In this document: positions 1,105 through 25,033 of the stretch, piece by piece
Layout: each line of letters starts with the position of its first letter
How positions within the stretch are numbered: position 1 is the first letter of the stretch
The notes under the pieces: generated by a model
Database searches by the model: none
What the model was told of the DNA's origin: nothing
The model's input: only the letters and a program-made list of their open reading frames with translations
Assembly: GCF_000187245.1 (NCBI RefSeq)
Contig: NC_027862.1
Span: 1-64,000 of the forward strand
Reading direction: 5' to 3'
Source of the DNA: Ogataea parapolymorpha DL-1
Taxonomy: Eukaryota > Ascomycota > Pichiomycetes > Pichiales > Pichiaceae
Length of the DNA: 64,000 nt
Made by a program: the position numbers and the translations under genes

Positions 1105-1839
1105 ATGAGATTCCTTTCGCTTTCCTCTGCTCTGACTGCTCTTGCTTCCCTCGCTGCTGCTGCAGACCTTACCACTTTCTCTCTTGTTATCAACAGGGAT
1201 GGAGCAATTTTCACCAAAGTTTTAACCTCCACTATTGGAAACACTGATGCCGGATATGCCCAGCAATATGTTACCAACACCAACATCCACGTTTACACCG
1301 TCGGAGATGCTCAGGCTTCCTCGTCTTTCTGGGCATACATTAACGGTGCTACCTCCACTGAATCTTCCTCTACTGCTACCTCCACTGCCGTGACCACTTC
1401 CTCTACTGGGGTCACCTCTTCGGAAGTTACCTCTGCTCCTCAATCCACTGAGGCTACTGCCACTACCTCCAGTGCTGCTGAGCTGACTACTGAGAGTGTT
1501 GTTCTGTACAAGAACAACCACGTCTTCACCAAGGTCGTCACCAACACCGTTGGCATTATCAACCCTGGCAGAGCCGCTGCCTCTGGAAATACTAATGTCC
1601 TGGCTTACACTATTGGTGACGCCAGCGGTTCTGCTGCCTTCTACTCTGCTCTGTACGAGAAAACTGCTGCAGCTCAGTCTTCTCAGTACTCTAGCAGCCC
1701 TGCAGCTGTCTCTTCAAGAAGCTCTGCAGCTGCCTCTTCTAGTGCCAAAATTGCTACTTACGAGGGTGCTGCTGCCGAGAATGTTGCTAAGGTCGGCATG
1801 GGTGCTTTGCTGTCGGGAATGGCCGTTCTTCTTATGTAA
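1105..1839 (+). CDS. GPI-anchored cell-wall protein with two copies of a ~55-residue module
   Basis: A 244-aa secreted protein. Residues 1-20 form a signal peptide ending in an Ala run. Residues 22-80 and 127-185 are diverged copies of one module: both read LTT-x-S-[VL]-V near the start, then FTKVxTxTxG and Y-T-[VI]-GDA before S-x-x-F. A Ser/Thr-rich spacer separates them and a second one (about 186-215) follows. The C-terminus is hydrophobic after small residues, as in a GPI-attachment signal. The same module occurs once in the protein at 6214-6693. I do not recognise it as a named domain. The likely role is a structural or adhesive wall mannoprotein; no catalytic residues are evident. The ATG at 1105 gives the complete signal peptide. 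Confidence 0.8.
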   Translation: MRFLSLSSALTALASLAAAADLTTFSLVINRDGAIFTKVLTSTIGNTDAGYAQQYVTNTNIHVYTVGDAQASSSFWAYINGATSTESSSTATSTAVTTSSTGVTSSEVTSAPQSTEATATTSSAAELTTESVVLYKNNHVFTKVVTNTVGIINPGRAAASGNTNVLAYTIGDASGSAAFYSALYEKTAAAQSSQYSSSPAAVSSRSSAAASSSAKIATYEGAAAENVAKVGMGALLSGMAVLLM

Positions 1840-6213: not shown

Positions 6214-6693
6214 TTATAGCAACATAAGACAGACAGATAGACCCATAGCAGCGGAAATTGTTCCCAGTTGCAAACCTGCTGCTCCGTTAGAGCTGCTGGT
6301 CGACGATGAGGACGACTCTGTGCTAGTTTCAGAGGCCGAGGTAGAAGTCTCCTTCTCAGAAGAGCTGGATTCTGTGGTAGTGGTGGCTGTGGCCTTTGCA
6401 CTAGCTGCCGAAGCAGACGACTCGGATGCCAGGACTGAAGCCCTGCTGTAGAAAGAAGCCGAACCAGATGAATCACCAATAGTATAAGCAAGGATGTTGC
6501 TGTCACTCACATACTGATTCACATAGTCGATAGACTGGCCAACGGTGGAAGTCATCACCTTGGTGAAAAATGCACCGTATCTGGAGATGACAAGGGAGTA
6601 TGTAGTGACAGCAGCAGAGGCGGTGTCTGTTGACGTAGCACCCATTGAAAGGCCAGAAAGGGCAAGGACGGAAGCAAGGTTTTGGAACTTCAT
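6214..6693 (-). CDS. Small GPI-anchored wall protein, single-module paralogue of the 1105 gene
   Basis: A 159-aa protein starting at 6693; the frame is open further upstream, but only this ATG places a signal peptide at the N-terminus. Residues 29-83 are one copy of the module seen twice in the protein at 1105 (TTYSLVIS, FFTKVMTSTVG, YTIGDSSGSASFYS). A Ser/Thr/Glu-rich stretch and a C-terminal hydrophobic GPI-type tail follow. It is divergent from the MFS gene at 6950 (256 bp between starts). It is likely a wall protein that arose by duplication and module loss, or is the ancestral single-module form. Confidence 0.78.
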   Translation of the reverse strand: MKFQNLASVLALSGLSMGATSTDTASAAVTTYSLVISRYGAFFTKVMTSTVGQSIDYVNQYVSDSNILAYTIGDSSGSASFYSRASVLASESSASAASAKATATTTTESSSSEKETSTSASETSTESSSSSTSSSNGAAGLQLGTISAAMGLSVCLMLL

Positions 6694-6949
6694 GTTGTAG
6701 ATGAAAATTGAAGATTGGGTGAAGTATAAGTTACGAATTTGTTCCACTTTTTTTCTGGAGTCCCTTTCGAGGGAGGGTCCAGCACCTTTCAAATGCGGAC
6801 TGCACGGACTCATCGGTGATTATTCTTTTTTCCTTGGATGCACGACGGCTTTCCTTTTTTCGCGCTCATGCAGCACCGAGTGGCACAGGGGCAGCCGGTA
6901 TTCCACAATTGAGGTGGAAAAGACCCCCAGTCAAGGTGGTTGGTTGACT

Positions 6950-9067: not shown

Positions 9068-10789
9068 TTACATCTGACCCACGGATCTTGCACTCATGAC
9101 AACCTGTAGGTCGCTCTTGTGCTCGTAGCTTCCAGAAGCAACGTCTTTCTCAACTTCAACCACTGTTCCAGGGTAGCCCACACCGTTGATTGGCTCGTCG
9201 TCCTCGAAAAAGCCGTTGGTCTCGACCAAATACTCCCATGTTTTGGGAGTCTCGCTATACTCATCCGGGTATATTTTAGGCTTGAAGATCAACCCGAGAA
9301 CAGTGTAGGCGACAAATCCAATGATAAACGTGTACAACCAGCCACCGTAGAAAATGTTCGAGGCTGTCTGGGTCAACGCTTCGGGATGGTAGGATCTGTA
9401 AAGGCCAGGAATAGCGATAATCGGGGAAATGAGCCATGCCACTGCTGCCCATATGTTGAACCCCTTGTAGAAATAGTAGATTCCCTTTGGATTCTTCGTG
9501 TACAATGAGGGAACGTGGATGTTGCCTTTGCGGATGATGTAGAAGTCAGATAACAGACACCCGAGCAAAGGAGCGACGAAAATGGAGTAAGAACCAAGAA
9601 ATGAGACAAGTGTAGCTGCAGAGTTAATCATTTTCCATGGGACCATTCCCCATGCCAGAAGCCCGAGGAAGATCTGGCCGCGAACAATAGTGAAGTATTT
9701 TGGTAGCAGACCACACAGGTCAGCAGCAAATGGAATAGAGTTGCCAAAAATGTTTGTACCTGCTGCGCCGAGAGCAAATGAGACAGAGCATAAGAACACG
9801 GCACAGCGCGTGCCTGGGCCCCACTCGTTCTCAAGTATAGCAGACAGCAGGTCCCACATGCTCCAGTATGACTCTCCGTAAGCTCTGCGGATGGAAGCAT
9901 TAGAGGCCATGCCGATCAACAAAATTGCAAGCGTCGAGGGAATGTAACCAATTGATTGGGGCCAGATGGCACTGTGCTTCTTCTTTGCGTACCGAGCAAT
10001 GTCTGGCTGATTGATGATCATCGCAGACACCGATCCAATGATAGAGTTGATCATATGAATCCATTGGTTGCCGGTAGTAGTGACCTTTTCCACACTGACA
10101 CCAATATCGTAGTCTCCAGGACCACCTCCCTTGATCATACAAAAGATAAAAAGACCAAAAGCGGCAATAGGCATGATAATACCCTTAACGGTGAAGAACC
10201 AACGGATCTGTCTTGGATGCAAAAACATCAACGGGAACTGCACGATCCAGTATAGTAAAAATGCTACCATCAGCCGTGTCGTAATTTGTGCACTGTCAGG
10301 GAGGTAATTTGGAATGTCTGTCCATTTATGGCCAAACACACAGCGTAGGGCAATGTCGAAACATCTCGAGCCATAATAAGTCTGGACACCAAACCACAAG
10401 GCAGCAACAAACATACGCACAAACACAAAGAAGCTGGCAAGCCACACCCCAAAGACAGCCCTTGCAACCGCAGGGTACCCGATATGGTAATCGGCTCCCG
10501 ACCGGGCAGAAACAACCACCAGCAAACAGCAGAAGAAGGCAGTTATGATAGCACCCCCAATAACGTGTTTATATGGAAGCCCTGTAGCCTTCATAAGTGA
10601 TGATCCTGTATTCCACGAACTAACTCCGAACGCTGACTGGAACCAGACCACGATGTAATTGTACGTCTTCCACGTTCTCTCCTGTGGAGGGGTGGGTTTT
10701 AGGTCGCGGTTGGCTCTAAGCAAGTCATCGTCATCCTCAGTGTCGTCTCGCACAGACACGAAGTGGTCAAACCGTTTGAGAACGTTCAT
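9068..10789 (-). CDS. NCS1 (Fur/Dal4-type) permease, likely for hydantoins or related cyclic ureides
   Basis: A 573-aa, 12-segment transporter of the nucleobase-cation-symport-1 family, Fur branch (Fur4, Fui1, Dal4 and bacterial hydantoin carrier Mhp1). Residues 32-60 hold the family start (PTPPQERTW, then a YNYI segment). W132 and Q136 in WFGVQT correspond in position to the Trp/Gln pair that contacts ligand in Mhp1. NQPDIARYAK (260-269) and GAAGTNIFGNSIPFAADL (341-358) are the NCS1 signatures of the sixth and eighth segments. It lies 157 bp downstream of the amidohydrolase gene on the same strand, with its own GATAAG-TTGCCC site in that spacer. Context favours hydantoins or dihydropyrimidines, but allantoin or uracil cannot be excluded from sequence. 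Confidence 0.88.
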   Translation of the reverse strand: MNVLKRFDHFVSVRDDTEDDDDLLRANRDLKPTPPQERTWKTYNYIVVWFQSAFGVSSWNTGSSLMKATGLPYKHVIGGAIITAFFCCLLVVVSARSGADYHIGYPAVARAVFGVWLASFFVFVRMFVAALWFGVQTYYGSRCFDIALRCVFGHKWTDIPNYLPDSAQITTRLMVAFLLYWIVQFPLMFLHPRQIRWFFTVKGIIMPIAAFGLFIFCMIKGGGPGDYDIGVSVEKVTTTGNQWIHMINSIIGSVSAMIINQPDIARYAKKKHSAIWPQSIGYIPSTLAILLIGMASNASIRRAYGESYWSMWDLLSAILENEWGPGTRCAVFLCSVSFALGAAGTNIFGNSIPFAADLCGLLPKYFTIVRGQIFLGLLAWGMVPWKMINSAATLVSFLGSYSIFVAPLLGCLLSDFYIIRKGNIHVPSLYTKNPKGIYYFYKGFNIWAAVAWLISPIIAIPGLYRSYHPEALTQTASNIFYGGWLYTFIIGFVAYTVLGLIFKPKIYPDEYSETPKTWEYLVETNGFFEDDEPINGVGYPGTVVEVEKDVASGSYEHKSDLQVVMSARSVGQM

Positions 10790-10852
10790 TTTGATGAGGG
10801 TTTACTGATTTGAGCCTCGTTTTTATAGTTTCAAAAAGTCTGCCGAGACTCT

Positions 10853-10874
10853 GATAAGTTGCCCTATCGTGCAT
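10853..10874 (+). promoter_or_regulatory. Composite GATAAG-TTGCCC site, permease promoter
   Basis: GATAAGTTGCCC is followed by TATCGTGCAT. It lies 64 bp upstream of the permease ATG (10789, minus strand). Twenty of its 22 bases match the site at 12493-12514. A second GATAAG sits at 10911-10916. GATA factors drive nitrogen-catabolite-sensitive genes in yeasts; the TTGCCC part may bind the cluster regulator (inference). Confidence 0.6.
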
Positions 10875-10946
10875 GAAGAAATATCGCGAATCTGGAAATC
10901 AGAGATTGGAGATAAGAAAATTTTTTCGGATTGGGAAATACATCTG

Positions 10947-12452
10947 CTATTCAAAAATGTAGGACAACTTGCCCACGGGGCCCGGCATGCTGGATATTGC
11001 CCGTTTTACATACTGACCTGTACTTTTTGAGGCCAGAAGACCGTTGCTATCTCTATCCCAGACCACAGAACCCCTCAAAATTGTGTATCTTGGCCAATTT
11101 GTAAATTCCACTCCTTCAAAAGGTGAGTAGTCTATGCCGTGGTGGAGCATCGAGTTGGTCAAAGTGAATGGTGTCATTTTACCCTTTGGGTACCAGATAA
11201 CAAAGTCAGCATCCTTGCCCACAGCAATCGTTCCCTTCTGATCAAGGCCGTACAATTTTGCCGGGTTCGAGCAGCACAGCTCAACGTACCGTTGTGCAGT
11301 AATTTTGCCTGTCTCAACACCTTTACAGAACAATAACGGCATTCTTGTCTCAATTCCCGGCAGTCCATTTGGCACCTTTTTGTAGTGGGGAATTCCGTTC
11401 ACCAGTCCAGCTTTTTTCCCTAGCGGGTGGTCGTAAATAGTCGGAGCATGGTCGCTGCTGAACACAGTCACCGTTCCATTCTGAATGGCTCTCCAGACTC
11501 CATCGAGCTCACTCTGAGATTGTCTCAATGGCGGCGAACAAATGTACTTGGCTCCCTCAAAGGGGTCATCTTTGTGGACATGGTGCGAGCACTGGTGCTT
11601 CAAGTAGTCGGCCGTCAAAAATAAGTACTGTGGACAAGTCTCTGCAAAGATTGGCACCAGACTGTTCTGTGCCTCTCTGACGGTCGCCAATGCAGTTTCA
11701 GATGACATGTGCACAATCAAAATAGGAACATCTATCATTTTGGACAAAGAGATCACCCGATAAGTAGCCTCGTCCTCAGCTACTTTTGGACGGCTAACGG
11801 AGTGGTAAAAGGGATCTGTAAGTTTCTTCTCCTCCAGCTTTTTGCCTATGAAGTCAATGATATCCGCATTTTCAGCATGGATCATTGTTGTGATTCCCAA
11901 CTTGCGATTCGACAAGAGAATATCGAGAAGCTGCTCGTCGGAAAGACGATACCGAGGATAAGTGGTGTACACCTTGACTGAGGTGATTCCGTGCTGCTGT
12001 GCCAATAGGGGAAGCTGGGTCTTCAGGATCTCGTCATTGGGGTTGGAAATAATCACGTGAAACCCGTAGTCGCAGTAAGAGTTGTTCTTTGCTTGTGTGT
12101 GGTACTCTTCAACTGCAGAAACCAAGTCAAAGTCCTCTTTGGAGTTTTGGATTGCAAACGGGATCACCGTAGTAGTTCCTCCTGGTGGAGCAGAACGAGT
12201 TCCCGACTCAAAAGTGTCGCCAGCAGGAGTATTTTTCTGGGACAAGTGGACGTGCGAGTCGATGCCGCCTGGCATGATATAGCCTCCCTCGGCATCTATA
12301 ATTTTTTTCCCCGTGAGCGGTGTTGCTGAGATCTGTTCGATGATGCCGCCTTTGACACCAATGTATGTTGACGGTGGCATCACGTCGGAGCCTACCACGA
12401 CAAGCCCGTTGTGGATGACAAGATCGAATTGCCCTCTTTGATACGAAAACAT
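10947..12452 (-). CDS. Cyclic amidohydrolase: hydantoinase/dihydropyrimidinase
   Basis: A 501-aa binuclear-metal amidohydrolase. It opens cyclic ureides such as 5-substituted hydantoins or dihydropyrimidines to N-carbamoyl amino acids. Visible metal ligands are H67 and H69 (GGIDSHVH), the carboxylated Lys K160 (TSVKVY), H192 (IHAEN), H248 (VHMSS) and D334 (SSDHAP). Y165, five residues after the Lys, matches the substrate-gating Tyr of D-hydantoinases. Length is normal for the family. It is divergent from the racemase gene (102 bp between starts) and upstream of the permease on the same strand. A pyrimidine-degradation role (PYD2-like) is the main alternative; the adjacent racemase and D-carbamoylase-like genes favour hydantoins. 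Confidence 0.87.
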   Translation of the reverse strand: MFSYQRGQFDLVIHNGLVVVGSDVMPPSTYIGVKGGIIEQISATPLTGKKIIDAEGGYIMPGGIDSHVHLSQKNTPAGDTFESGTRSAPPGGTTTVIPFAIQNSKEDFDLVSAVEEYHTQAKNNSYCDYGFHVIISNPNDEILKTQLPLLAQQHGITSVKVYTTYPRYRLSDEQLLDILLSNRKLGITTMIHAENADIIDFIGKKLEEKKLTDPFYHSVSRPKVAEDEATYRVISLSKMIDVPILIVHMSSETALATVREAQNSLVPIFAETCPQYLFLTADYLKHQCSHHVHKDDPFEGAKYICSPPLRQSQSELDGVWRAIQNGTVTVFSSDHAPTIYDHPLGKKAGLVNGIPHYKKVPNGLPGIETRMPLLFCKGVETGKITAQRYVELCCSNPAKLYGLDQKGTIAVGKDADFVIWYPKGKMTPFTLTNSMLHHGIDYSPFEGVEFTNWPRYTILRGSVVWDRDSNGLLASKSTGQYVKRAISSMPGPVGKLSYIFE

Positions 12453-12492
12453 GCTATTTTCGATTAGGCCGAACCAAGTCCTTTTTATCGCA

Positions 12493-12514
12493 GATAAGTT
12501 GCCCGATCCTGCAT
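12493..12514 (+). promoter_or_regulatory. Composite GATAAG-TTGCCC site, amidohydrolase/racemase divergent promoter
   Basis: GATAAGTTGCCC followed by GATCCTGCAT, in the 102-bp spacer between the starts at 12452 (minus) and 12555 (plus), so it could serve both genes. It matches 10853-10874 at 20 of 22 positions; the shared core is TTGCCC-[GT]-ATC-[CG]-TGCAT. Confidence 0.62.
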
Positions 12515-12554
12515 ATTAAATAAAAAGGATAGCCAGCGCGACTTGATATTTTTC

Positions 12555-13349
12555 ATGTCTCTGCAATTGGAAGATCTTCCATCAGTTGGGGGTTTGGGAA
12601 CCTCCATCAAAGTTCTGTTTGTCAATCCCAATGCCACAGTCTCGATGACCGCGTCCTGTCTGAAAATAATCTCCAGCAGTCTTCCGCCGGACACCACAGT
12701 CTATGGGTATACGGGGCCAGCTGGTAAGACTTCAGTGACAATCGAAAGTCACTTAGATTCCGTCCTGTCTGCAGCAGAGAGTCTTAGAGATGCATACCCT
12801 CTCTTTTCTCAGGTCGATGCCGCTGTTGTTGGCTGTTTCTCCGACCATCCGCTGGTAAACTGTATTCGAGAAGAGTTTGACATCCCGTGCTGTGGAATAA
12901 TGGAGGCAGCTTTTTACACTGCTCGAATGCTTGGTGGAAAGTTTGGAGTTCTATGTACTGGGTACCGGTCACAGATCCGTCACCAGTACGCAGTGCAAGG
13001 CTACGGTCTGGAAAATTTTTGTGCAGGTCTTTTGTCGACAAAGCTCACGGTCAAGGAGCTGGAGACGAAACCAAGAAAGGAGGTTCTTTCATTAATGGCC
13101 AATTGTGCAAAGCAGTTGGTTGAACAGCAAGATGCAGACTGTATTGTTCTCGGCTGTGCGGGGATGGCAGATATGGCTTCTGCCGTGGAAGATGCACTGG
13201 AGGGACGCAGTGTGCAAGTTATTGATGGAGTGTGCTGTGCCGTTAATATTTTATCTGGGTTTGTGCGTATGGGGCTGAAAACATCCAAGAGAGGATTGTT
13301 CACATGGGCCAAGCCGGGAAGAGAATTAAGGGGACAGTCTTATTTGTAA
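12555..13349 (+). CDS. Asp/Glu/hydantoin racemase family protein (DCG1-like)
   Basis: A 264-aa protein of the aspartate/glutamate/hydantoin racemase superfamily. The first in-frame ATG is at 12555; the four codons before it follow a TTG. IKVLFVNPNAT (18-28) is the family start. Cysteines C94 (VVGCFSD) and C201 (VLGCAGM) are at the places of the two catalytic cysteines that exchange the alpha proton in hydantoin racemases. The S. cerevisiae relative Dcg1 lies in the DAL allantoin cluster, and its function was unassigned as far as I know. Here the gene is divergent from a cyclic amidohydrolase, which supports racemisation of 5-monosubstituted hydantoins. Its stop is 18 bp from that of the convergent GH3 gene. 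Confidence 0.85.
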   Translation: MSLQLEDLPSVGGLGTSIKVLFVNPNATVSMTASCLKIISSSLPPDTTVYGYTGPAGKTSVTIESHLDSVLSAAESLRDAYPLFSQVDAAVVGCFSDHPLVNCIREEFDIPCCGIMEAAFYTARMLGGKFGVLCTGYRSQIRHQYAVQGYGLENFCAGLLSTKLTVKELETKPRKEVLSLMANCAKQLVEQQDADCIVLGCAGMADMASAVEDALEGRSVQVIDGVCCAVNILSGFVRMGLKTSKRGLFTWAKPGRELRGQSYL

Positions 13350-13367
13350 AAAAATCCTAATTGTATT

Positions 13368-15904
13368 CTATACAAGTCTATCAAGCCATATCAGAGGCTG
13401 GGAAACGGTAAACTCTTGCTCCAAAAAATTTCCCTCGCTTGACGTTCCCACAAGAACAGTGTAGGTCCCGGCCTCCATAGTCCACTTATCACGAGCTTCG
13501 TTCCAGTAAGAAGTGGCAAACTTACCGTCGATCGATATACACACTTTCTGGGAGCTTCCTGCTTCCAGAAATATTTTGCTAAATCCTTTCAGCTCTTTGA
13601 ATGGCCGCCTAATTGCTGGGCGGTTGTGATGAATGTAGACCTGAACGACCTCTGCACCGGCACAGTCACCTGTATTTTTGACCAGAACTTCAACCTCGAG
13701 CATGCCATCGTATTGCACCTTTAAATCAGACAAAGCAAAAGAGGTGTAGCTCAGCCCGTGACCAAATGGAAACAGTGTAGAGACATCTTGTGTATCGTAA
13801 AAGCGGTAGCCAACGTAAACATCCTCACCATAGAGAACCCTGCCGTTTTCTGTTCCGAAATTAATATAGCCTGGACAATCTTCTAAACGTTTGGGGAAGG
13901 TAAGGGGCAGCTTCCCAGCAGGGTTGACGTTGCCGAAAACAACGTCTGCAATTCCGCTGCCTGTTTCGTTTCCGCCGTAAGAGGTGTACAATAAAGCCTT
14001 TGCTTTGCTCTCCCAAGGCATTTCGACTGGCGTCCCTGCCTGGATCACCACGACTGTGTTTGGATTTGCGTCCAAAACGGAGTCTATCAGACGGTCGTTA
14101 TGGCCGGGAAGCTTCATGTTCTTCCTGTCCGATCCTTCAGATTCCCATTCTTTATTAAGCCCCGTAACAAGAATAACCTGTGAGGCTTCGCGAGCTGCCT
14201 GTGCTGCCTTCTGAATCTCCTGCTCGTCGTTTATCCGCGGAGCACCACCAAACATCAGACCTCCAGCTCCGAAAAAGACAGGATTCGATTGGTGCAACAT
14301 GCTCGTTGGGGACGAGCCAAACTCGATACGCAATCTGTACCGTTTTCCGGCTTTGACGATATACGATCCTCGGACCTCCACTGTTCCTCTTCCGTAGAAC
14401 GACTCGCCAGGTTTCTGGTCGTGCAAATTGTCAATAATCAACTGGTCGTCCAAAAACAGCAGTGCAGTCCCGTAAGCACTGACACCAAAGTCAAATGCGC
14501 CGTCTGATTCGGGAATGAAGTTCGACGTGAGACAGCAATAAAATGTGCTTGACTTCAATTTCGGATTGACGTAGTCATTCATCCGGAAATAATTGATATC
14601 TCTTAGAGTCAGATCATCAACGGCAACTCTCTCCTTGACCTCAAATGGCTCGTTGTAAATTTGGAACCGCACTCCAGTACTTCCATTGTTCAGCTTCAAA
14701 TAGCGAGCGAGAGAAGGCATGTATCTGTGAGAATATGCTCCAATCCGAAACGACACATTCTCCGGGCCAATCTCCTTGCTGATAGCGTCAAATGGAGACA
14801 CAGTGTAGTATGGTGTTACTAATGCAGACCCTCCGCCAGAGTAGGCAGTGTAAATAGCATTTGGACCAATGACCAGAGTCTTTTCCTTTTTTAGTGGTAG
14901 CACACCATCCTTGTTTTTGAGAAGTACGACAGCCTCACCTGCTATTTTCCTCAAAAACGCTCTCGTTTCAGAAGTATCACGCTGCTCCTCTGCCTTATCA
15001 TCCTCAATGCCCGCATCTATGACGCTGTTTGCCAACTGAAGCACCTTACGAGCGCGCTCGTTCAATACCTCATCCGAGATTTTGCCAGCAACCAAGGCCC
15101 TACTAAGGTTAGCTCCTCTCCAAATTCCGGGGCCGGGCATCTCCAGATCAAGGCCAGCGAACAACGCTTCAGTAGTGGAGTAGGTGCCTGTCCAGTCTGA
15201 CATTATGAGGCCCTGATAGCCCCACTGGTGTTGGAGAATCTCTGAGAGCAGGTATTTATCCTCGCTCACATGGACCCCGTTGACTCGATTGTAGCTTGTC
15301 ATAATAGCTTTGGGCTTGGATTCCTTGATTGCAATCTCAAATGGACGGAGGTAAATCTCTCGCAAGGCACGCTGCGAAATCACCGAATTCGAACTGAAAC
15401 GCTCGTGCTCCTGGTCGTTGCCGACGTAGTGCTTCATGGTGGCAGCAAGACCTGACTTTTGAAACCCCTTAATATACGCAGCAGACAAGATTCCCGACAG
15501 ATACGGATCTTCCGAGAATGACTCAAAACCACGTCCGCCAAGAGGAACACGCTGGATGTTGGCTGTCGGGCCTAAGATCACGTGCACACCTTTAGCTCGG
15601 GCCTCCTTGTCCAGCAATTCGCCCACTTGGAACAAAAGATCGTGATCCCAAGTGGAAGCAAGGGCAGTTCCTGATGGGATACATGCGGTCGGAGTACTGT
15701 TGAAGTGGTTCTGGCCACGAATACCATTTGGGCCGTCCGAAGTACGAATTTTGGGAATTCCAAACTGTGGCAGACCAGTCGTATGCCAGTAGTCGGCGCC
15801 TGAGAATTAGAATCCGGGGGATGTGACGTACCTGCAGTGAGAGCAATTTTTTGAGCTTCAGTGAGCTGCTGGAGCACTTCCTCAACATCGAATCTCCGAG
15901 ACAT
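13368..15904 (-). CDS. GH3 beta-glucosidase with PA14 insert, two exons split by a 32-nt intron
   Basis: An 834-aa product after removing a 32-nt intron (15800-15831). Exon 1 (15832-15904) encodes 24 codons plus one base; exon 2 (13368-15799) encodes the rest. Splicing restores GADYWHTTGLPQFG and SDGPNGIRG, which are conserved in GH3 enzymes; neither uninterrupted frame contains both ends. D226 in MSDW is the catalytic nucleophile. A PA14 domain lies about 398-535, the acid/base region is EWESEG (575-580), and a fibronectin-III-like domain ends the protein, as in Kluyveromyces BglI. No signal peptide, so probably intracellular. The promoter carries the cluster GATAAG and TTGCCCGA elements, so co-regulation with the hydantoin genes is likely. 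It may release a glycosylated substrate or be a passenger. Confidence 0.85.
15800..15831 (-). other. 32-nt intron in the GH3 gene
   Basis: On the minus strand it begins GTACGT, has a branch-like TTCTAAT, and ends CAG seven bases after the presumed branch A. Its length is not a multiple of three, so retention breaks the frame, and its removal rebuilds conserved GH3 residues exactly. It has the same compact plan as the MED31 intron. Confidence 0.8.
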
Positions 15905-16521
15905 TTGTGTAGTTTAGGGTTTGAAAATACTTTATGTACCTTGAATTTTTTTAGCCTTCGGGCAACTTACATCAGGTGCGATAACGTTGTTATCAATATG
16001 ATAAGCCATTACGGCAGGCATCTGACAAAATAGAGAAAAAGGTCTGCATCTTATATTGACTGTAGATGGCTTGAGTAATGCCACTATTGCTTTGGATCTA
16101 GCATGATTTGAGCTTTTCAAGCCTTTTATCTTTTACAATAAACATTAACAGAAACAGGTTTTAAGGGAGTAGTTCGCAACTACGCACCGATACGTATGGA
16201 CAAGCACTAGCTTTGCCAAAGACGCCTTTTGCGTACCTTCTCTATTCGCCAGTATTTGGATTCATAATCTCATCTGTAGGTAGCATTGGCTTCAATTAGT
16301 CTTGCTTCTTACAACAGTAAAAGGGTTGTCAAATTTTTGATGGTTGCTTCCGCACGGTTAGTGTTCAGGCGGATTAACAGTCCCAAAAGGCTAAAAAAGA
16401 GCATTTCAGTATTCGCATTCTCCAACAGCCTGTGGAACTGCCAGACTCAGCATTTACTTCACATCTCAATTTTAATGTTATTAAGTGACACTTCTATACC
16501 TTTATTCTCTATTACTCCCCT
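15905..16521. other. Spacer and promoter of the GH3 gene
   Basis: 617 bp upstream of the GH3 ATG and downstream of the dehydrogenase stop. The first ~100 bp hold the regulatory elements listed separately. Further on there is a perfect small inverted repeat (GTAGTT-CGC-AACTAC, 16169-16183). No gene is supported. Confidence 0.5.
15957..16005. promoter_or_regulatory. TTGCCCGAA element and GATAAG site, GH3 promoter
   Basis: Read on the minus strand, AAGTTGCCCGAA spans 15957-15968, 53 bp upstream of the GH3 ATG. A GATAAG lies at 16000-16005 on the plus strand. The pairing is the same as in the other promoters of the cluster, although here the two parts are separated. Confidence 0.55.
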
Positions 16522-17559
16522 TCATGTGCCAATCTTGTTAACAGATTCTGGCTTTCCACTACCGTAGAAATATTCAACCAGATTAGCAACGCACTTTCTC
16601 TCAAAAGCCTTGAAACTGTCGATGGAGGTCACCCCCACATGCGGAAGCAATGTCACTTTGTAGTTCTCTAAAAGTTTTGGGTGAATTTTCGGCTCAAACT
16701 CGTGAACATCAAAACCTGCTCCTACCAGCTGGCCCCGTTCAAGAGCATCGATGACCGCTGCTTCCTCAACAATCGGTCCCCTGGCTATATTGACCAGTCG
16801 AACGTGATCCTTCATGTGCTTGAATCGTTCTCCATTTATCAGATGGTGTGTGGCAGGCGTGTGTGGGCAGGCAACAAACACACAGTCGGTAACGGCGAGC
16901 ATGTCGTTCAGATTTTTGAAGTATTTCAGATCCTCTAGTTTTCCCTCATACTCTGGTTTTGGTGTTCTATTATGGTATGCCACTTTCATTCCCAATGCTT
17001 TGCACGCCACTGCCACACGGAACCCTATGTTACCGAGTCCAATGATTCCTAGTGTTTTTCCAGACGGATTTTCACCCCACAGAGCTAGCGGTGCAGACTC
17101 ATAGTATCTGTTGGTCCGAACACAGTGCTCCGCATATGTAAGGTAGCGAAAAGATTGAAGAACAAGGGCAACACCGACATCTGCAGTTGCAATGGTACAA
17201 CAGTCAGGAGAGTTGCAAAAAAGCACACCTCTTTTTGTCAAGTAGTCGACGTCAACAATGTCGTAGCCATGCCCGGACTGGACAATTATCTTCACCGTGT
17301 CGGGCAATGCCTTAACTGGCTCCCCTCTGAATAGATAATGGTGCACATACGGCTGGCCTTTCAGCCAGGATGAGCGACAGATGGCCTCTATACCTGCGAA
17401 CTTTCCGTGTGGCTTCTGCACCTCGGCAATGTATTCTTCCTCTGATTTGCAGTCATAGGTGATGACCTCAAACTTCTGGTTCAGAGTCTTCCAGGCAGTC
17501 TCGTCGTGGATATTCTGGACGGAGGGTATGTACAGCACCTTCGGCTTGTGGTCAGTCAT
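16522..17559 (-). CDS. D-2-hydroxyacid dehydrogenase
   Basis: A 345-aa NAD(P)-dependent dehydrogenase of the D-isomer-specific 2-hydroxyacid family (as YPL113C or GOR1). It interconverts 2-oxo acids and D-2-hydroxy acids. The start at 17559 (MTDHKPKV) begins the family fold; the 17 residues before it are basic and unlike the family. The Rossmann motif GIIGLGNIG is visible, with catalytic Arg in NIARGPIV, Glu in FDVHEFEP and His in LPHVGVTS. In cluster context it could reduce a 2-oxo acid formed by deamination of the D-amino acid released by the carbamoylase; that step needs an oxidase or transaminase not found here. The promoter shares the GATAAG and TTGCCCGATC elements. Confidence 0.85.
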   Translation of the reverse strand: MTDHKPKVLYIPSVQNIHDETAWKTLNQKFEVITYDCKSEEEYIAEVQKPHGKFAGIEAICRSSWLKGQPYVHHYLFRGEPVKALPDTVKIIVQSGHGYDIVDVDYLTKRGVLFCNSPDCCTIATADVGVALVLQSFRYLTYAEHCVRTNRYYESAPLALWGENPSGKTLGIIGLGNIGFRVAVACKALGMKVAYHNRTPKPEYEGKLEDLKYFKNLNDMLAVTDCVFVACPHTPATHHLINGERFKHMKDHVRLVNIARGPIVEEAAVIDALERGQLVGAGFDVHEFEPKIHPKLLENYKVTLLPHVGVTSIDSFKAFERKCVANLVEYFYGSGKPESVNKIGT

Positions 17560-17600
17560 GATTGATTTCAGTTCTGATGGTAATTTTTTTTTATATCGCC

Positions 17601-17631
17601 GATCGGGCAACTCGCAGGAGCGGATCTTATC
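17601..17631 (-). promoter_or_regulatory. TTGCCCGATC element and GATAAG, dehydrogenase promoter
   Basis: On the minus strand GAGTTGCCCGATC occupies 17601-17613 and GATAAG 17626-17631, 42 and 67 bp upstream of the ATG at 17559. The element extends into CCGATCGG, a palindrome of CGG half-sites suited to a Zn2Cys6 factor. Confidence 0.6.
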
Positions 17632-17651
17632 TTAAACTAGATAGCGCGAAA

Positions 17652-19481
17652 TCAGTATTCAGGCACATTTAATATCCACATGGCAAGGCCCAGATGCCGA
17701 AACACCAACGACCTGCTCTGGAAAAAGAACCGGAGCTTGGCCATGTTCGCTTCAACAGCTTTAGACTGGCTTGGAGGACACAGTCGCGATACGAGGAGGA
17801 AAAAGTTGGCGATGGTTGCAAAGTTGAACCTCGACCAAGAGTACCAAAAAGACTCAAAGTGATGCGGCCTTAGTCTCCCGAGGATTTCCAGAACCTCTAC
17901 AGTAAGCTCCAAACATTCGTGCTCGACCTTAGTTCTGGAAACTTGGTCCTCCCCTGCCTCCGTTTCCATTAAACGGAGAAGAGAGCTGTAGATTAGCACC
18001 TTGGCCGTTAGAGCTGCAACAACCAGTGCTGCCGCACTTCTGCCGCCAGATAAGATCTGGTCCAGATTAAAAATATCTGAATTCTCGTTCCTCAGTGTGT
18101 CAATGCGCTGGAGAAAAGCCTTAGCTTTGTCATGAGCTGGACTCAGCAGAGAGCTGTTCAGCTCTCCTAAATCATCAATCACCATGGTCACACTCACTAC
18201 GAGACTGAAGATGCGCACTTCACATTCGTGCTGCTCCTGTGATCCCCATGAATCCGGGTAGAATGCAAAATCAGAGCCGTCAACCATCGACACGTTCCAT
18301 GCGTCTCTGGATATAAAACTTGCCCGTCCAAGAGATAAACTAAGCCATTTTTCCTGGACAAATAGTGTCCACCATAGCCGTCGTCGGACCCTCTTCTCCC
18401 AGTCAGGGATGTTCCAATGACGACACTCTACATTAATCCCCATAGACTGGCAAATTGTGAATGCAACGCTCAGCAAAGATAATTCTTGGGTCCCGTCAAG
18501 CTCAACATTTTCAAGTGTCAGTTTTTGGGACAACAGCAAGCACGATTGAAGGGTTCCGTAGCAGGGGTTTGACGTCTCAGAAAGTATTGTCGCCCGAGTA
18601 GCAGAGACCAAAGACTCCACTGTCGGACACTCCATCAAGCTCAACTCAGGATGCCTGTGCCACCAATCGACGGTGACAGCAAGCAGACTGCCAAAAAGCG
18701 CAGAAGGAAAGACCTTTGGGTCCTGCTTGGCGAAGGTATTAAAGCGGCCGCGCGAGAAAACGGGGAAGTATGAGTTCACATGTTTGAGAAATAGCACCAT
18801 GAGTTTGGGAATGTGCGGGCTGAAAAGCTGCTGTATAAGCGAATTAATACCAGGCACGTCGTAGTTTGTTGGTTTGCGCGAGAAGAGCACATACTCTGCG
18901 GCTCCAGCTTGGACCACTTTACGGATATGGCACTCTTTTGGTTCTGCACTTTCTAGATTTTTGGATAGATGCTGGACAACGGGATCAATGTAGCCAGATT
19001 TATAGAGATAAACGTTCTGGTACTTTTTGAAAGCATCAATGGAGGAGTGTTCCTCGTCGTCTCCAGTAGTCACAGGAGAGGTTATAGCAACATTGCTGTA
19101 CTGGTTTGAGCCAACGATCAGCCCAAAAAGCTCGTTCCAGATTTCTGCGTCTGGAATTAATTGATCTGCATGAACAACGTTCCTCCGTTCAAGAGTTTTA
19201 GAATCAAATGTTGTTTCTACGATGTCGTCTGTATATGTCAGGTCGGCAACTGGATCACTATACTCCAGCTCCGCAACAGGATTTATCTCAATTTCATGGT
19301 TTTTAGCCTGTTTGTGCCGATTCACAGGCGGTGCCTTATCTGTGAACTCACACCGGAGGTTGAATTTAGCACACAGCTGGCACGGCGGCTCTCCATCGAT
19401 GACACAACCGGATTTTCGTCTTCGACACCTGTCGCACGGCCGCACTCTTCTCGATCTGTAGGGCCGTAGAACGGGAGGCAT
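17652..19481 (-). CDS. Zn2Cys6 transcription factor, probable regulator of the hydantoin cluster
   Basis: A 609-aa binuclear-zinc-cluster activator. The start at 19481 (MPPVLRPYRSRR) is preferred over an upstream ATG-less extension. The DNA-binding cluster is C-DR-C, RRRKSG-C, then C-QL-C and a last Cys after AKFNLR, in the order C-x2-C-x6-C-x7-C-x2-C-x6-C near residues 17-43. The middle homology region includes RRRLWWTLFVQEKW and LGRASFISRDAW, which resemble Dal81/TamA-type nitrogen regulators; I am not certain of that subfamily. It is divergent from the carbamoylase gene (99 bp between starts), and that spacer contains two TTGCCC elements and a GATAAG, so autoregulation is plausible. It is a natural candidate to bind the shared element. 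Confidence 0.85.
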   Translation of the reverse strand: MPPVLRPYRSRRVRPCDRCRRRKSGCVIDGEPPCQLCAKFNLRCEFTDKAPPVNRHKQAKNHEIEINPVAELEYSDPVADLTYTDDIVETTFDSKTLERRNVVHADQLIPDAEIWNELFGLIVGSNQYSNVAITSPVTTGDDEEHSSIDAFKKYQNVYLYKSGYIDPVVQHLSKNLESAEPKECHIRKVVQAGAAEYVLFSRKPTNYDVPGINSLIQQLFSPHIPKLMVLFLKHVNSYFPVFSRGRFNTFAKQDPKVFPSALFGSLLAVTVDWWHRHPELSLMECPTVESLVSATRATILSETSNPCYGTLQSCLLLSQKLTLENVELDGTQELSLLSVAFTICQSMGINVECRHWNIPDWEKRVRRRLWWTLFVQEKWLSLSLGRASFISRDAWNVSMVDGSDFAFYPDSWGSQEQHECEVRIFSLVVSVTMVIDDLGELNSSLLSPAHDKAKAFLQRIDTLRNENSDIFNLDQILSGGRSAAALVVAALTAKVLIYSSLLRLMETEAGEDQVSRTKVEHECLELTVEVLEILGRLRPHHFESFWYSWSRFNFATIANFFLLVSRLCPPSQSKAVEANMAKLRFFFQSRSLVFRHLGLAMWILNVPEY

Positions 19482-19491
19482 AGTGGTTTGT

Positions 19492-19560
19492 GAGTTGCCC
19501 GAACTTAAATAGTTTTTTTCACATTGCCCGCGCATGCATATGAGATATATATATGATAAG
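19492..19560. promoter_or_regulatory. Two TTGCCC elements and GATAAG in the regulator/carbamoylase promoter
   Basis: GAGTTGCCCGAA begins at 19492. A second copy, TTGCCCGCGCATGCAT at 19524-19539, shares the TTGCCC and terminal TGCAT of the sites at 10853 and 12493. GATAAG lies at 19555-19560, 20 bp before the carbamoylase ATG. The whole divergent spacer is only 99 bp. Confidence 0.6.
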
Positions 19561-19580
19561 AAAATGGAGATCTCACTATC

Positions 19581-20585
19581 ATGACTAGATTGCTAAAGGT
19601 CGCAGCTGCCCAGGTTGGCAGAATCGACATTGACACTCCCTATGAGGATGTGGTTCAGCGTATGATTGCACTTCTGGACGAGGCGCACGAAAAAGGCGTC
19701 AAGCTCGTCAACTTCCCAGAACTCACCTTTACCACCTTCTTTCCTCGGTATATTATTCCGTTCGGCCCAGAACTCGACAAGTGGTACCAGAAAGGCGACG
19801 TTACCAAGTTTGATCCGTTCAAGCCATTTTTTGAGAAAGCCAAAGAGTATGGCATTGCCGTTTGTGTTGGCTATGCAGAGCTGACGGACAAAGATGAACA
19901 TTACAACACGTCCGTTTTTGTCGACCAGGCAGGAAATAACCTGAACAAGTACCGGAAAATGTTCTTACCTGGTGACAAAGAGCCGCTCGAGAATGTTCCG
20001 TGGCAGCATCTCGAGAAGAGATACTTTCTCGAAGGCAACTTGAACTGGAAAGCATTCAGATGGCCAGGAACGGGAACCGGCCATGGAGGACCTATTATTG
20101 GGCAACTGATCTGCAACGACAGGAGATGGCCCGAGTCATGGAAGATCCTGGGGCTTCAAGGAGCGGAAATTGTCTGTATTGGCTACAACACGCCAGTTTC
20201 CAACGTGGCAGAACCGGGCAAGGCCTCCCAAATGGTCAATTCCGACTCGTCTGAGGCAATGGCTACTTTCCACAACGAGTTGTGTCTGCAGTACAATTCT
20301 TACCACAACTGCTGCTACTCTTTGTGTTCTGCACGGACAGGCGCCGATGACGGCAAGTATTCCATGATTGCAGGATCGACGATAGTTGATCCCCAGGGCG
20401 TGATTATCGCCAAGTCGAAGACCAACGGTGACGAGCTTGTCTGGGCCGAGATTGATCTCGACAGCTGCTACCCGCCAAGAAATAGGGCTTTCAACTTTGC
20501 TCGGCATAGACGTCCGGAGGAGTACAAATTGATCGTGGAGCAGAAGGGGGTCAAGGAGCCTGCTCCGCTGGAGGATGAAATGTAG
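19581..20585 (+). CDS. N-carbamoyl-D-amino-acid amidohydrolase (D-carbamoylase)
   Basis: A 334-aa nitrilase-superfamily enzyme. It hydrolyses N-carbamoyl-D-amino acids to the amino acid, CO2 and ammonia, the step after hydantoinase. The catalytic triad is visible: E47 in FPELTFTTFFPR, K126 in YRKMFLPG and C178 in CNDRRWPE. The CNDRRWPE block, HLEKRYF (143-149) and GYNTP are hallmarks of bacterial D-carbamoylases such as the Agrobacterium enzyme and differ from eukaryotic beta-ureidopropionases. Length is somewhat above the ~304 aa usual for bacteria, with an insert near 160-172. The strong bacterial resemblance makes horizontal acquisition plausible. The substrate side chain cannot be read from sequence. 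Confidence 0.9.
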   Translation: MTRLLKVAAAQVGRIDIDTPYEDVVQRMIALLDEAHEKGVKLVNFPELTFTTFFPRYIIPFGPELDKWYQKGDVTKFDPFKPFFEKAKEYGIAVCVGYAELTDKDEHYNTSVFVDQAGNNLNKYRKMFLPGDKEPLENVPWQHLEKRYFLEGNLNWKAFRWPGTGTGHGGPIIGQLICNDRRWPESWKILGLQGAEIVCIGYNTPVSNVAEPGKASQMVNSDSSEAMATFHNELCLQYNSYHNCCYSLCSARTGADDGKYSMIAGSTIVDPQGVIIAKSKTNGDELVWAEIDLDSCYPPRNRAFNFARHRRPEEYKLIVEQKGVKEPAPLEDEM

Positions 20586-23533: not shown

Positions 23534-25033
23534 TCAGACCTGGTTCTCGTGGGCAACCTCCTGCTCCTCCTCCTCGATGTTATGTGTGAGGGACACCATC
23601 TTGTTCTCCGGGCCGACCAGCGTGATCAAAAACACGTATGCGAACACAGCTCCGACGAAAATAACCATCACGGTAGCATAGTCAAACACCTCCGAAGGGT
23701 CCTGGCCGTCGATTGGGAAATGCTCGCCCATCGTCGTCTCGATGGTCGAAGAGGCCGACGAGGCAAGGTTACCGAGCTGATAAGCGACACCGACAACGAA
23801 CGAACGGAAGTCTGGCGGAGCAAGCTCCGACAGATGGATTGGAATGACACCCCAGGCGCCCTGGACGCAAAATTGCAGGAAAAAGGCGCCCGCGTTGATT
23901 CCAGTGCCTTTGATGAACGCCCATGGGTACAGCAGCGCGGCACCGCAGACGCAGCAGATGAGGATCGACAGACGTCTGCCGATGAAGTTGGAAAAGTGGC
24001 CGACGATAATACCGCCCACGAAAGCGCCGATGTTGGCCACGCAGTTCGTCACAGTGGATCTGTCGTGCGAATAGTTGTACAGCTTCGTCAGCATCGTAGG
24101 ATACAGGTCCTGGGAGCCGTGCGACATGAAGTTGAAGCCGGCCATGAGCAGCACGAGATAGATGATCATGGCCCAATAGTTCTTGAGAGCGCCGATGGCC
24201 TTCTGCGAGAACGTTGGCTGCGGAATGCCGCATTCTCTGTTGTACTGCTCGATTTCTCTCTGGCGCACAAACGCCTTGGTGTCTGGCAGCGAGAGTCTGA
24301 AAGCGAACAGACACAGCGAAACCGAGCCACCAAGCAGAAACAGCGACTTCCAGCCCATTTCGACGTTGTCTGCGAGCACTCTGGTGAAGACCACGGCGAG
24401 AAGGTAGCCGAACGTGTAGCCCTGCTGCAACAGTCCGGAAATAAAGCCTCGGGCCTCGGATGGACAGTCATCGAGCGCGGTGGCAGCGGCGTTTCCGTAG
24501 ATTCCACCCAGCATGATGCCAAAGATGGCTCTCACGCCAAGGAATTGCTCGTAGGTGCTGACTCCGTAGGTGCCGAACTGGATGGCAGCCATGAGGAAGA
24601 TGTTGAGACAGAGCGGGTATTTTCTGCCGTATCTGTCGCCGAGGTAGCCAAACACAATACCACCCACGGATCTCAGCATGAGCACGAGCGTGATCCCCCA
24701 CGTAATCTGTTTCACGGTCTTATCAAAGTATGTGGCAAGGTTGGCAGCGTTCAACGAAACACAGAAAAAATCGTACGCGTCCCAGGTCCAGGCCAAAAAA
24801 GCAGATAAAAACATAACCCACTGTCTAGCAGGGATGAGTTTGAGACCCGGCAGCGGGTTCAAAAGGTGTTTGTTGGCCTTCATCATCGCCTTCGATGGGA
24901 CAAGGTCGGTGAATCTAGTCTTGGCATAGTGGGCAATGGATTTTGCCGAGAGGTCGAGAGGCTTCACCTCGTCGTCCACAGCCAGTCCCTTGTAGTTGTC
25001 TTCCTTAACAGAGAGCGATTCCAGATCACTCAT
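23534..25033 (-). CDS. JEN1: JEN-family monocarboxylate/dicarboxylate:proton symporter
   Basis: A 499-aa MFS carrier for lactate, pyruvate or dicarboxylates across the plasma membrane. The family signature N-x-x-S-H-x-S-Q-D-x-x-x-T is intact at 301-313 (NFMSHGSQDLYPT). Motif A reads GDRYGRKYP (132-140). The N-terminal cytosolic stretch of ~70 residues and short C-tail with acidic run match the family, which is regulated by endocytosis. Transport of mono- versus dicarboxylates (JEN1 versus JEN2) cannot be decided by eye. The 800-bp upstream spacer is large for this window, consistent with a carbon-regulated promoter. Confidence 0.9.
   Translation of the reverse strand: MSDLESLSVKEDNYKGLAVDDEVKPLDLSAKSIAHYAKTRFTDLVPSKAMMKANKHLLNPLPGLKLIPARQWVMFLSAFLAWTWDAYDFFCVSLNAANLATYFDKTVKQITWGITLVLMLRSVGGIVFGYLGDRYGRKYPLCLNIFLMAAIQFGTYGVSTYEQFLGVRAIFGIMLGGIYGNAAATALDDCPSEARGFISGLLQQGYTFGYLLAVVFTRVLADNVEMGWKSLFLLGGSVSLCLFAFRLSLPDTKAFVRQREIEQYNRECGIPQPTFSQKAIGALKNYWAMIIYLVLLMAGFNFMSHGSQDLYPTMLTKLYNYSHDRSTVTNCVANIGAFVGGIIVGHFSNFIGRRLSILICCVCGAALLYPWAFIKGTGINAGAFFLQFCVQGAWGVIPIHLSELAPPDFRSFVVGVAYQLGNLASSASSTIETTMGEHFPIDGQDPSEVFDYATVMVIFVGAVFAYVFLITLVGPENKMVSLTHNIEEEEQEVAHENQV

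What the first reader, a model, noticed from the sequence alone, without database searches (positions are those of the whole stretch)
9068..20585. A complete hydantoin-utilisation gene cluster in a yeast
Seen: an NCS1 permease with the Mhp1-type Trp/Gln pair, a binuclear cyclic amidohydrolase with all ligands, a two-cysteine hydantoin-racemase-type protein and a nitrilase with the D-carbamoylase hallmark CNDRRWPE, all within 11.5 kb with a Zn2Cys6 regulator and a 2-hydroxyacid dehydrogenase. In bacteria the same four activities (HyuP, HyuH, HyuA and the D-carbamoylase) form the hydantoinase pathway that turns racemic 5-substituted hydantoins into D-amino acids. I know of no described eukaryotic counterpart. 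Inference: this yeast imports and uses hydantoins as nitrogen source, possibly with carbon leaving as a 2-hydroxy acid.
Basis: partly seen in the sequence, partly recalled or inferred. Interest (0 to 1): 0.9.

Follow-up and report, generated by a model that had tools for sequence, protein, structure and literature searches.

The report
Yeast hydantoin-to-D-amino-acid gene cluster
Near one chromosome end of a methylotrophic yeast lies a set of neighbouring, apparently jointly regulated genes that look able to import hydantoins, open the ring and free D-amino acids as a nitrogen source, a route best known from bacteria; the function is predicted from sequence and not yet tested.

Summary
In detail: NCS1 permease, cyclic amidohydrolase, two-cysteine racemase and D-carbamoylase-type nitrilase lie at the stated coordinates with catalytic residues intact, beside a Zn2Cys6 regulator and a 2-hydroxyacid dehydrogenase. 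A GH3 glycosidase gene with a broken frame lies inside. Contig sizes identify Ogataea parapolymorpha (Hansenula polymorpha) DL-1, chromosome 5, subtelomeric. New evidence for one regulon: AGTTGCCC occurs six times in the 64-kb window, five of them 45-81 bp before cluster genes, one in each of the five upstream regions; GATAAG is enriched there. The regulator's only close paralogue in the genome lies on chromosome 7 beside a D-amino-acid oxidase gene whose upstream DNA carries three copies of the core TTGCCCG. This ties the cluster to D-amino-acid oxidation, as a D-selective hydantoinase pathway predicts. Against the simplest reading: the amidohydrolase is sister to yeast dihydropyrimidinase PYD2, a PYD3-like enzyme exists elsewhere in the genome, the racemase falls nearer allantoin-type racemases, and the permease's Trp/Gln pair is not specific. 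Substrate and conservation in sister yeasts are untested. Best reading: a eukaryotic assembly that works like bacterial hyu systems, built at least partly from yeast ureide enzymes.

The parts
9068..10789 (-). NCS1 (Fur-type by my reading) permease, candidate importer of the hydantoin
   Evidence: PF02133 273.7 bits; Mhp1 is the only solved relative found, 60 bits; W132, Q136, W243, N346, N350
10947..12452 (-). Cyclic amidohydrolase of the D-hydantoinase/dihydropyrimidinase family, PYD2 lineage
   Evidence: TIGR02033 422.6 over cut-off 393.25; ligands complete; sister to PYD2 structure 2fty at 99/99
12555..13349 (+). Asp/Glu/hydantoin racemase-family protein with both catalytic cysteines (C94, C201)
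   Evidence: PF01177 177.8 bits; solved relatives named hydantoin or allantoin racemase
13368..15904 (-). GH3 beta-glucosidase-type gene, reading frame broken near 15806-15830
   Evidence: Pfam GH3 N, GH3 C, PA14, Fn3-like; two frames; AGTTGCCC 56 bp before its ATG
16522..17559 (-). D-2-hydroxyacid dehydrogenase, nearest solved relative D-mandelate dehydrogenase
   Evidence: PF02826/PF00389; 2w2k 187 bits
17652..19535 (-). Zn2Cys6 regulator; may start at its second Met (19481)
   Evidence: PF00172, PF04082; close paralogue beside a D-amino-acid oxidase gene on chromosome 7
19581..20585 (+). Nitrilase-family N-carbamoyl-D-amino-acid hydrolase type
   Evidence: 11 solved D-carbamoylase sequences at 217-237 bits, next 47 bits; E47-K126-C178, CNDRRWPE
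10853..10874 (+). GATAAGTTGCCCTATCGTGCAT, permease promoter (AGTTGCCC 68 bp before the ATG)
12493..12514 (+). GATAAGTTGCCCGATCCTGCAT, divergent hydantoinase/racemase promoter (about 45-51 bp from each ATG)
15960..15967 (-). AGTTGCCC before the GH3 gene
17605..17612 (-). AGTTGCCC before the dehydrogenase (46 bp from the ATG)
19493..19530 (+). AGTTGCCC at 19493 and a second TTGCCCG at 19524, 81 bp before the nitrilase ATG; inside the regulator's ORF if its first ATG is used, 12 bp before it if the second Met is the start

Best explanation
The block is a catabolic regulon that works like a bacterial D-selective hydantoinase system. The permease imports a 5-substituted hydantoin (inferred). The racemase equilibrates its enantiomers (inferred from family and cysteines). 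The PYD2-lineage amidohydrolase opens the ring to an N-carbamoyl-D-amino acid (active site shown, substrate inferred). The D-carbamoylase-type nitrilase releases D-amino acid, ammonia and CO2 (family and active site shown, activity inferred). A D-amino-acid oxidase encoded on chromosome 7 beside a paralogue of the cluster regulator deaminates it (regulatory link shown at sequence level, flux inferred). The 2-hydroxyacid dehydrogenase may reduce the resulting 2-oxo acid (inferred). The Zn2Cys6 protein probably controls the set through AGTTGCCC/TTGCCCG, together with GATA-type nitrogen control (sites shown, binding inferred).
For: Gene content and intact active sites. Solved D-carbamoylases at 217-237 bits against 47 for N-carbamoylputrescine amidase, 36 for a chain also named beta-ureidopropionase and 27 for CG3027. 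AGTTGCCC: 5 in 1064 bp of cluster upstream regions, 0 in 6042 bp of other intergenic DNA, the only 8-mer in 5 of 5 regions, 0 of 300 shuffles reach five. GATAAG 6 against 3. Regulator paralogue beside a D-amino-acid oxidase gene with three TTGCCCG upstream; of 7 tandem TTGCCCG pairs in the whole genome one is at the regulator/nitrilase promoter and one at that oxidase, and one of 2 everted pairs is at that oxidase. Five D-amino-acid oxidases of this strain were cloned by others (PMC9844085 passages). In bacteria D-carbamoylase, hydantoinase and racemase do lie side by side, e.g. Thioclava L048 and Maritimibacter L055, the latter holding the best-scoring bacterial match.
Against: No assay, growth or expression data. 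Amidohydrolase sister to PYD2 and a PYD3-like enzyme in the genome. Racemase nearer to allantoin-type racemases than to most carbamoylase-linked ones. Permease residues not specific; no NCS1 match in 69 bacterial D-carbamoylase loci. A close bacterial hydantoinase relative (Klebsiella L137) adjoins allantoinase PuuE and ureidoglycolate lyase. The GH3 gene has no place in the pathway. The oxidase locus is on another chromosome.
Confidence: 0.62

Rival explanations
1. Dihydropyrimidine catabolism: the amidohydrolase is this yeast's PYD2 dihydropyrimidinase feeding the PYD3-like enzyme on chromosome 2; racemase and nitrilase serve other ureides and the neighbourhood is a general ureide cluster.
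For: Amidohydrolase sister to PYD2 at 99/99 with a shared C-HH insertion; it is the only enzyme of its kind found in the genome; an M20 enzyme at C2:965.5 kb matches solved beta-alanine synthase 1r3n at 412 bits and lies near the 57% permease paralogue.
Against: PYD3-like gene is on another chromosome and its 400 bp upstream hold no TTGCCCG; the block instead holds a D-carbamoylase type and a racemase, and dihydrouracil is not chiral (established chemistry); link to a D-amino-acid oxidase.
Confidence: 0.2
2. A second allantoin/ureide route: racemase and permease handle allantoin or a relative, the amidohydrolase opens such a ring.
For: Racemase groups with allantoin racemases HpxA and 5lfd; permease kin include allantoin permeases; a close bacterial hydantoinase relative adjoins allantoinase PuuE.
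Against: A separate allantoinase (TIGR03178 469 bits, cut-off 358), a DCG1-like racemase and allantoicase exist elsewhere, none with TTGCCCG or GATAAG in 400 bp upstream; allantoinase models score the cluster enzyme far below cut-off.
Confidence: 0.1
3. No common pathway: a chance or decaying collection of subtelomeric metabolic genes.
For: Permeases and metabolic genes are over-represented near chromosome ends of this strain (PMC3866509 passages); the GH3 frame is broken.
Against: Shared upstream element confined, in intergenic DNA of the window, to this block; copy numbers; the other frames are intact.
Confidence: 0.05

Closest known systems
Bacterial hydantoinase (hyu) systems with D-carbamoylase
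   Same: Hydantoinase, racemase, D-carbamoylase and an NCS1 permease linked; bacterial examples with carbamoylase-hydantoinase-racemase in a row seen.
   Different: Eukaryotic host, monocistronic divergent genes, Zn2Cys6 and GATA-type sites; amidohydrolase of PYD2 lineage; racemase nearer the allantoin type; no bacterial sequence sampled above 48% identity.
PYD2/PYD3 dihydropyrimidine route of Lachancea kluyveri (organism recalled; structures 2fty and 1r3n)
   Same: Amidohydrolase is sister to PYD2; a PYD3-like enzyme is in the genome.
   Different: PYD2 relative is clustered with a racemase and a D-carbamoylase type, not with the PYD3-like gene.
DAL allantoin cluster of Saccharomyces cerevisiae (recalled: DAL1, DAL4, DCG1 and others)
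   Same: Same three kinds of protein: cyclic amidohydrolase, NCS1 permease, Asp/Glu racemase family.
   Different: Here the kinds differ (hydantoinase type, added D-carbamoylase), and the allantoin genes of this yeast lie elsewhere.
D-amino-acid oxidases OpaDAAO1-5 of O. parapolymorpha DL-1 (PMC9844085)
   Same: Same strain; one oxidase gene shares the regulatory core and a paralogous regulator.
   Different: The passages seen describe enzymes, not a hydantoin link; which OpaDAAO this is was not determined.

Membership tests
N-carbamoyl-D-amino-acid hydrolase | Glu-Lys-Cys triad and CNDRR.. carboxylate-binding arginines (role of arginines recalled) | tested here: met
   E47, K126, C178, R181, R182, invariant in 7 of 7 aligned
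N-carbamoyl-D-amino-acid hydrolase | Closer to this family than to other nitrilase branches | tested here: met
   217-237 bits against 47 or less
N-carbamoyl-D-amino-acid hydrolase | Hydrolyses N-carbamoyl-D- not L-amino acids | not testable with these tools
   needs assay
D-hydantoinase/dihydropyrimidinase (EC 3.5.2.2) | Binuclear metal ligands incl. carbamylated Lys; model TIGR02033 over cut-off | tested here: met
D-hydantoinase as opposed to dihydropyrimidinase | Substrate preference for 5-substituted hydantoins | tested here: inconclusive
   family spans both; tree puts it with PYD2
Hydantoin racemase | Two catalytic cysteines | tested here: met
   C94, C201
Hydantoin racemase as opposed to allantoin racemase | Groups with hydantoin racemases | tested here: inconclusive
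   groups with HpxA and 5lfd, support not starred; no characterised HyuA/HyuE row was at hand
Mhp1/HyuP hydantoin permease | Diagnostic binding residues | tested here: inconclusive
   W132, Q136, W243, N346, N350 present, but W/Q are common to most own NCS1
Bacterial hyu-type system | Hydantoinase, D-carbamoylase and racemase linked | tested here: met
Bacterial hyu-type system | Growth on hydantoins; joint induction | not testable with these tools
   no expression or growth data
Bacterial hyu-type system | Linkage kept in related species | not testable with these tools
   no fungal genome collection on hand; own genome has no relatives held

The most novel reading that the evidence does not exclude
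A eukaryotic D-hydantoinase regulon split over two subtelomeres: import, racemisation, ring opening and decarbamoylation on chromosome 5 and D-amino-acid oxidation on chromosome 7, under duplicated Zn2Cys6 regulators that read the same TTGCCCG element. It was assembled from yeast PYD2- and DCG1-like enzymes plus a D-carbamoylase, helps to explain why this strain keeps five D-amino-acid oxidases, and its natural substrate may arrive as a beta-glucoside (a GH3 gene shares the element, and a second GH3-permease pair adjoins the PYD3-like gene on chromosome 2).
Probability: 0.4. Interest if true: 0.85.

Novelty: new variant of a known kind. Interest (0 to 1): 0.72.

Why it matters
If true, it would be a eukaryotic hydantoinase/D-carbamoylase pathway of which my searches found no description (open-access PMC text only, and mostly listings seen). 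It would give a natural role to at least one of the many D-amino-acid oxidases of this strain, a long-standing puzzle of what D-amino acids such yeasts meet, and point to a yeast that carries the steps of an industrial D-amino-acid process. It is directly testable in an easily handled laboratory yeast.

Tried and rejected
First guess at the organism, a Wickerhamiella/Starmerella yeast rich in bacterial genes, was dropped: contig sizes match H. polymorpha DL1. A recent bacterial transfer of the whole block was considered: best bacterial identities are 46-48%, the amidohydrolase groups with yeast PYD2, and GC is unremarkable, so no recent donor is visible; an old transfer of the D-carbamoylase cannot be tested without fungal sequences. 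The Trp/Gln pair as a hydantoin signature was rejected. Racemases next to hydA in two Azospirillum plasmids are not matched by the yeast racemase at E 1. Of 8 plasmid hydantoinase loci read, 4 have an annotated racemase-family gene within the flanks. Of 86 bacterial D-carbamoylase loci held, 69 are at least 15 kb; among these a hydantoinase-type match occurs in 20 (12 at 38% identity or more), a racemase match in 31, NCS1 in 0; 80 of the 86 are the best of at least 588 genome hits and many are close Bradyrhizobium kin, so they are not independent.

Motif results against or neutral: a looser 12-mer with up to 2 mismatches is not enriched in the window (18 found, 24.3 expected); AGTTGCCC reached 6 in 2 of 100 whole-window shuffles, so it is the placement rather than the number that is striking; genome-wide AGTTGCCCKA gives 44 against 33 for the reversed control, five of the 44 in this block; at word length 7, 1 of 300 shuffles reached five regions; 1 of 16 control sets of other intergenic regions also shared an 8-mer five ways, the A/T-rich AAAATAAA. 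The other five tandem pairs and the other everted pair were not examined. Structure prediction was not run; it would not settle the substrate. Rows dropped: racemase tree 35 of 47 rows, carbamoylase tree 34 of 79 (thinned at 80% identity).
Full report
OBSERVATION. Catalytic residues are intact: amidohydrolase H67, H69, K160, H192, H248, D334; racemase C94 and C201; nitrilase E47, K126, C178 in CNDRRWPE. The nitrilase matches 11 solved sequences named N-carbamoyl-D-amino-acid hydrolase at 217-237 bits, then N-carbamoylputrescine amidohydrolase at 47, a chain named nitrilase or beta-ureidopropionase at 36 and CG3027 (recalled as insect beta-alanine synthase) at 27. The 2-hydroxyacid dehydrogenase is nearest to D-mandelate dehydrogenase, 187 bits.

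ORGANISM AND PLACE. The window is the first 64 kb of contig 5 of a 7-contig, 8,874,589-base genome. Contig lengths 990,963, 1,514,933 and 1,515,570 equal those of chromosomes 2, 6 and 7 of Hansenula polymorpha (Ogataea parapolymorpha) DL1 in Table 1 of PMC3866509 (passages). The cluster is thus 9-21 kb from the assembled left end of chromosome 5, within the 50 kb which that paper calls subtelomeric.

COPY NUMBERS IN THE OWN GENOME. The nitrilase has no second match. The hydantoinase-type enzyme's only other matches are two pieces of one allantoinase gene on chromosome 1 (TIGR03178 469 bits over its cut-off 358). The racemase has one distant relative at C5:794 kb, read as DCG1. NCS1 permeases gave seven places including this one, the nearest 57% identical at C2:961 kb. 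Allantoicase is at C2:409 kb. So allantoin genes lie apart from this block.

REGULATION. The five upstream regions of the block (permease; hydantoinase/racemase, divergent, 102 bp; GH3; dehydrogenase; regulator/nitrilase, divergent) each hold AGTTGCCC, 45 to 81 bp before a start codon. It occurs six times in the window; the sixth is inside the nitrilase gene. The regulator/nitrilase site lies inside the regulator's frame if its first ATG (19535) is used and 12 bp upstream if its second Met (19481) is the start; in either case it is 81 bp before the nitrilase ATG. AGTTGCCC is the only 8-mer found in all five regions; 0 of 300 dinucleotide shuffles shared any 8-mer five ways. One of 16 control sets did, with the A/T-rich word AAAATAAA. 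Counts: 5 in 1064 bp of cluster upstream DNA, 0 in 6042 bp of other intergenic DNA (Fisher p 7e-5); GATAAG 6 against 3 (p 6e-4). Permease and hydantoinase/racemase promoters share a 22-base stretch, GATAAGTTGCCCKATCSTGCAT, not found elsewhere in the window at up to three mismatches. The motif was noticed by eye in these promoters before it was tested, so the word test and the chromosome-7 result are the fairer measures.

LINK TO D-AMINO-ACID OXIDATION. The regulator has one close paralogue in the genome, C7:8088-10004 (41%); the other two matches at E 1e-10 are partial at 24% and 26% (pairwise 38% over 649 columns). It lies directly beside a gene whose nearest solved relative is D-amino-acid oxidase 1c0i, 170 bits. 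That gene has three TTGCCCG within 80 bp before its first ATG. Of 25 own-genome genes checked (13 of the DAO superfamily, 3 allantoin-type genes, 6 other NCS1, 3 M20), it alone has more than one in 400 bp; two have one and 22 none. A Poisson estimate from 81 kb of background gives 5e-7 for three. In the whole genome only seven tandem pairs TTGCCCG-N6..36-TTGCCCG exist, among them the regulator/nitrilase region and this oxidase, and two everted pairs, one at this oxidase; the reversed-pattern controls gave none. PMC9844085 (passages) reports five D-amino-acid oxidases and one D-aspartate oxidase cloned from this strain; which of them this gene is was not determined.

ANCESTRY. In a 30-row tree the amidohydrolase is sister to the PYD2 structure 2fty (99/99), among bacterial hydantoinases; both are long branches, the PYD2 row has odd composition, and no other fungal rows were available. 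The two share a C-HH insertion absent from the 11 other rows aligned and are 41% identical; bacterial proteins reach 47-48%. The nitrilase is a long branch with no supported place among sampled bacterial D-carbamoylases, at most 46-48% identical; the best-scoring one, from Maritimibacter, lies next to hydantoinase- and racemase-type genes. The racemase is nearest to plasmid racemases, two of which adjoin NCS1 permeases, and to allantoin racemases (not starred). An M20 enzyme matching beta-alanine synthase 1r3n at 412 bits, and TIGR01879 over cut-off, lies at C2:965.5 kb near the permease paralogue, an SMP-30 gene and another GH3 gene.

CONCLUSION. Gene content, shared upstream element and the oxidase link together favour a D-selective hydantoin pathway (0.62). 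PYD2 kinship and the PYD3-like gene keep a dihydropyrimidine role open (0.2); an allantoin-type role is less likely (0.1). Substrate, transport and binding are inferred.

PRIOR ART. No paper in the searched library holds both Ogataea and hydantoin. The other searches were seen as listings, most of them capped. PMC5169069 (12 of 17 passages) treats horizontal transfer of racemases of this family into fungi; the passages seen mention no such cluster. PMC13376923 (outline, section 7 and passages) and PMC8742932 (passages) concern other yeasts.

Noticed in passing
13368-15904 (-): GH3 beta-glucosidase-type gene in the block: its N-terminal part is in another frame, break near 15806-15830; mutation, intron or sequencing error not resolved. 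It shares the AGTTGCCC element.
   Followed up: partly
L050 and L051 (own genome C2:955000-974999): A second subtelomeric group: GH3, NCS1 paralogue (57%), SMP-30, PYD3-like M20, class II aldolase-type and an MFS transporter gene.
   Followed up: partly
L053 2077-5140 (own genome C7:8-11 kb): D-amino-acid oxidase gene beside a paralogue of the cluster regulator, with three TTGCCCG upstream.
   Followed up: yes
1105-1839 (+) and 6214-6813 (-): Two Ser/Thr/Ala-rich small proteins with a similar start and shared 'SLVI.R.GA.FTKV' stretch, no Pfam match; probably secreted or wall proteins (inference).
   Followed up: no
23534-25033 (-): MFS transporter scoring best with the 2A0112 sialate/lactate-type model, close to the block but without AGTTGCCC in its upstream DNA.
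   Followed up: no
L048 8941-11956: Thioclava plasmid with D-carbamoylase, hydantoinase and racemase genes in a row.
   Followed up: partly
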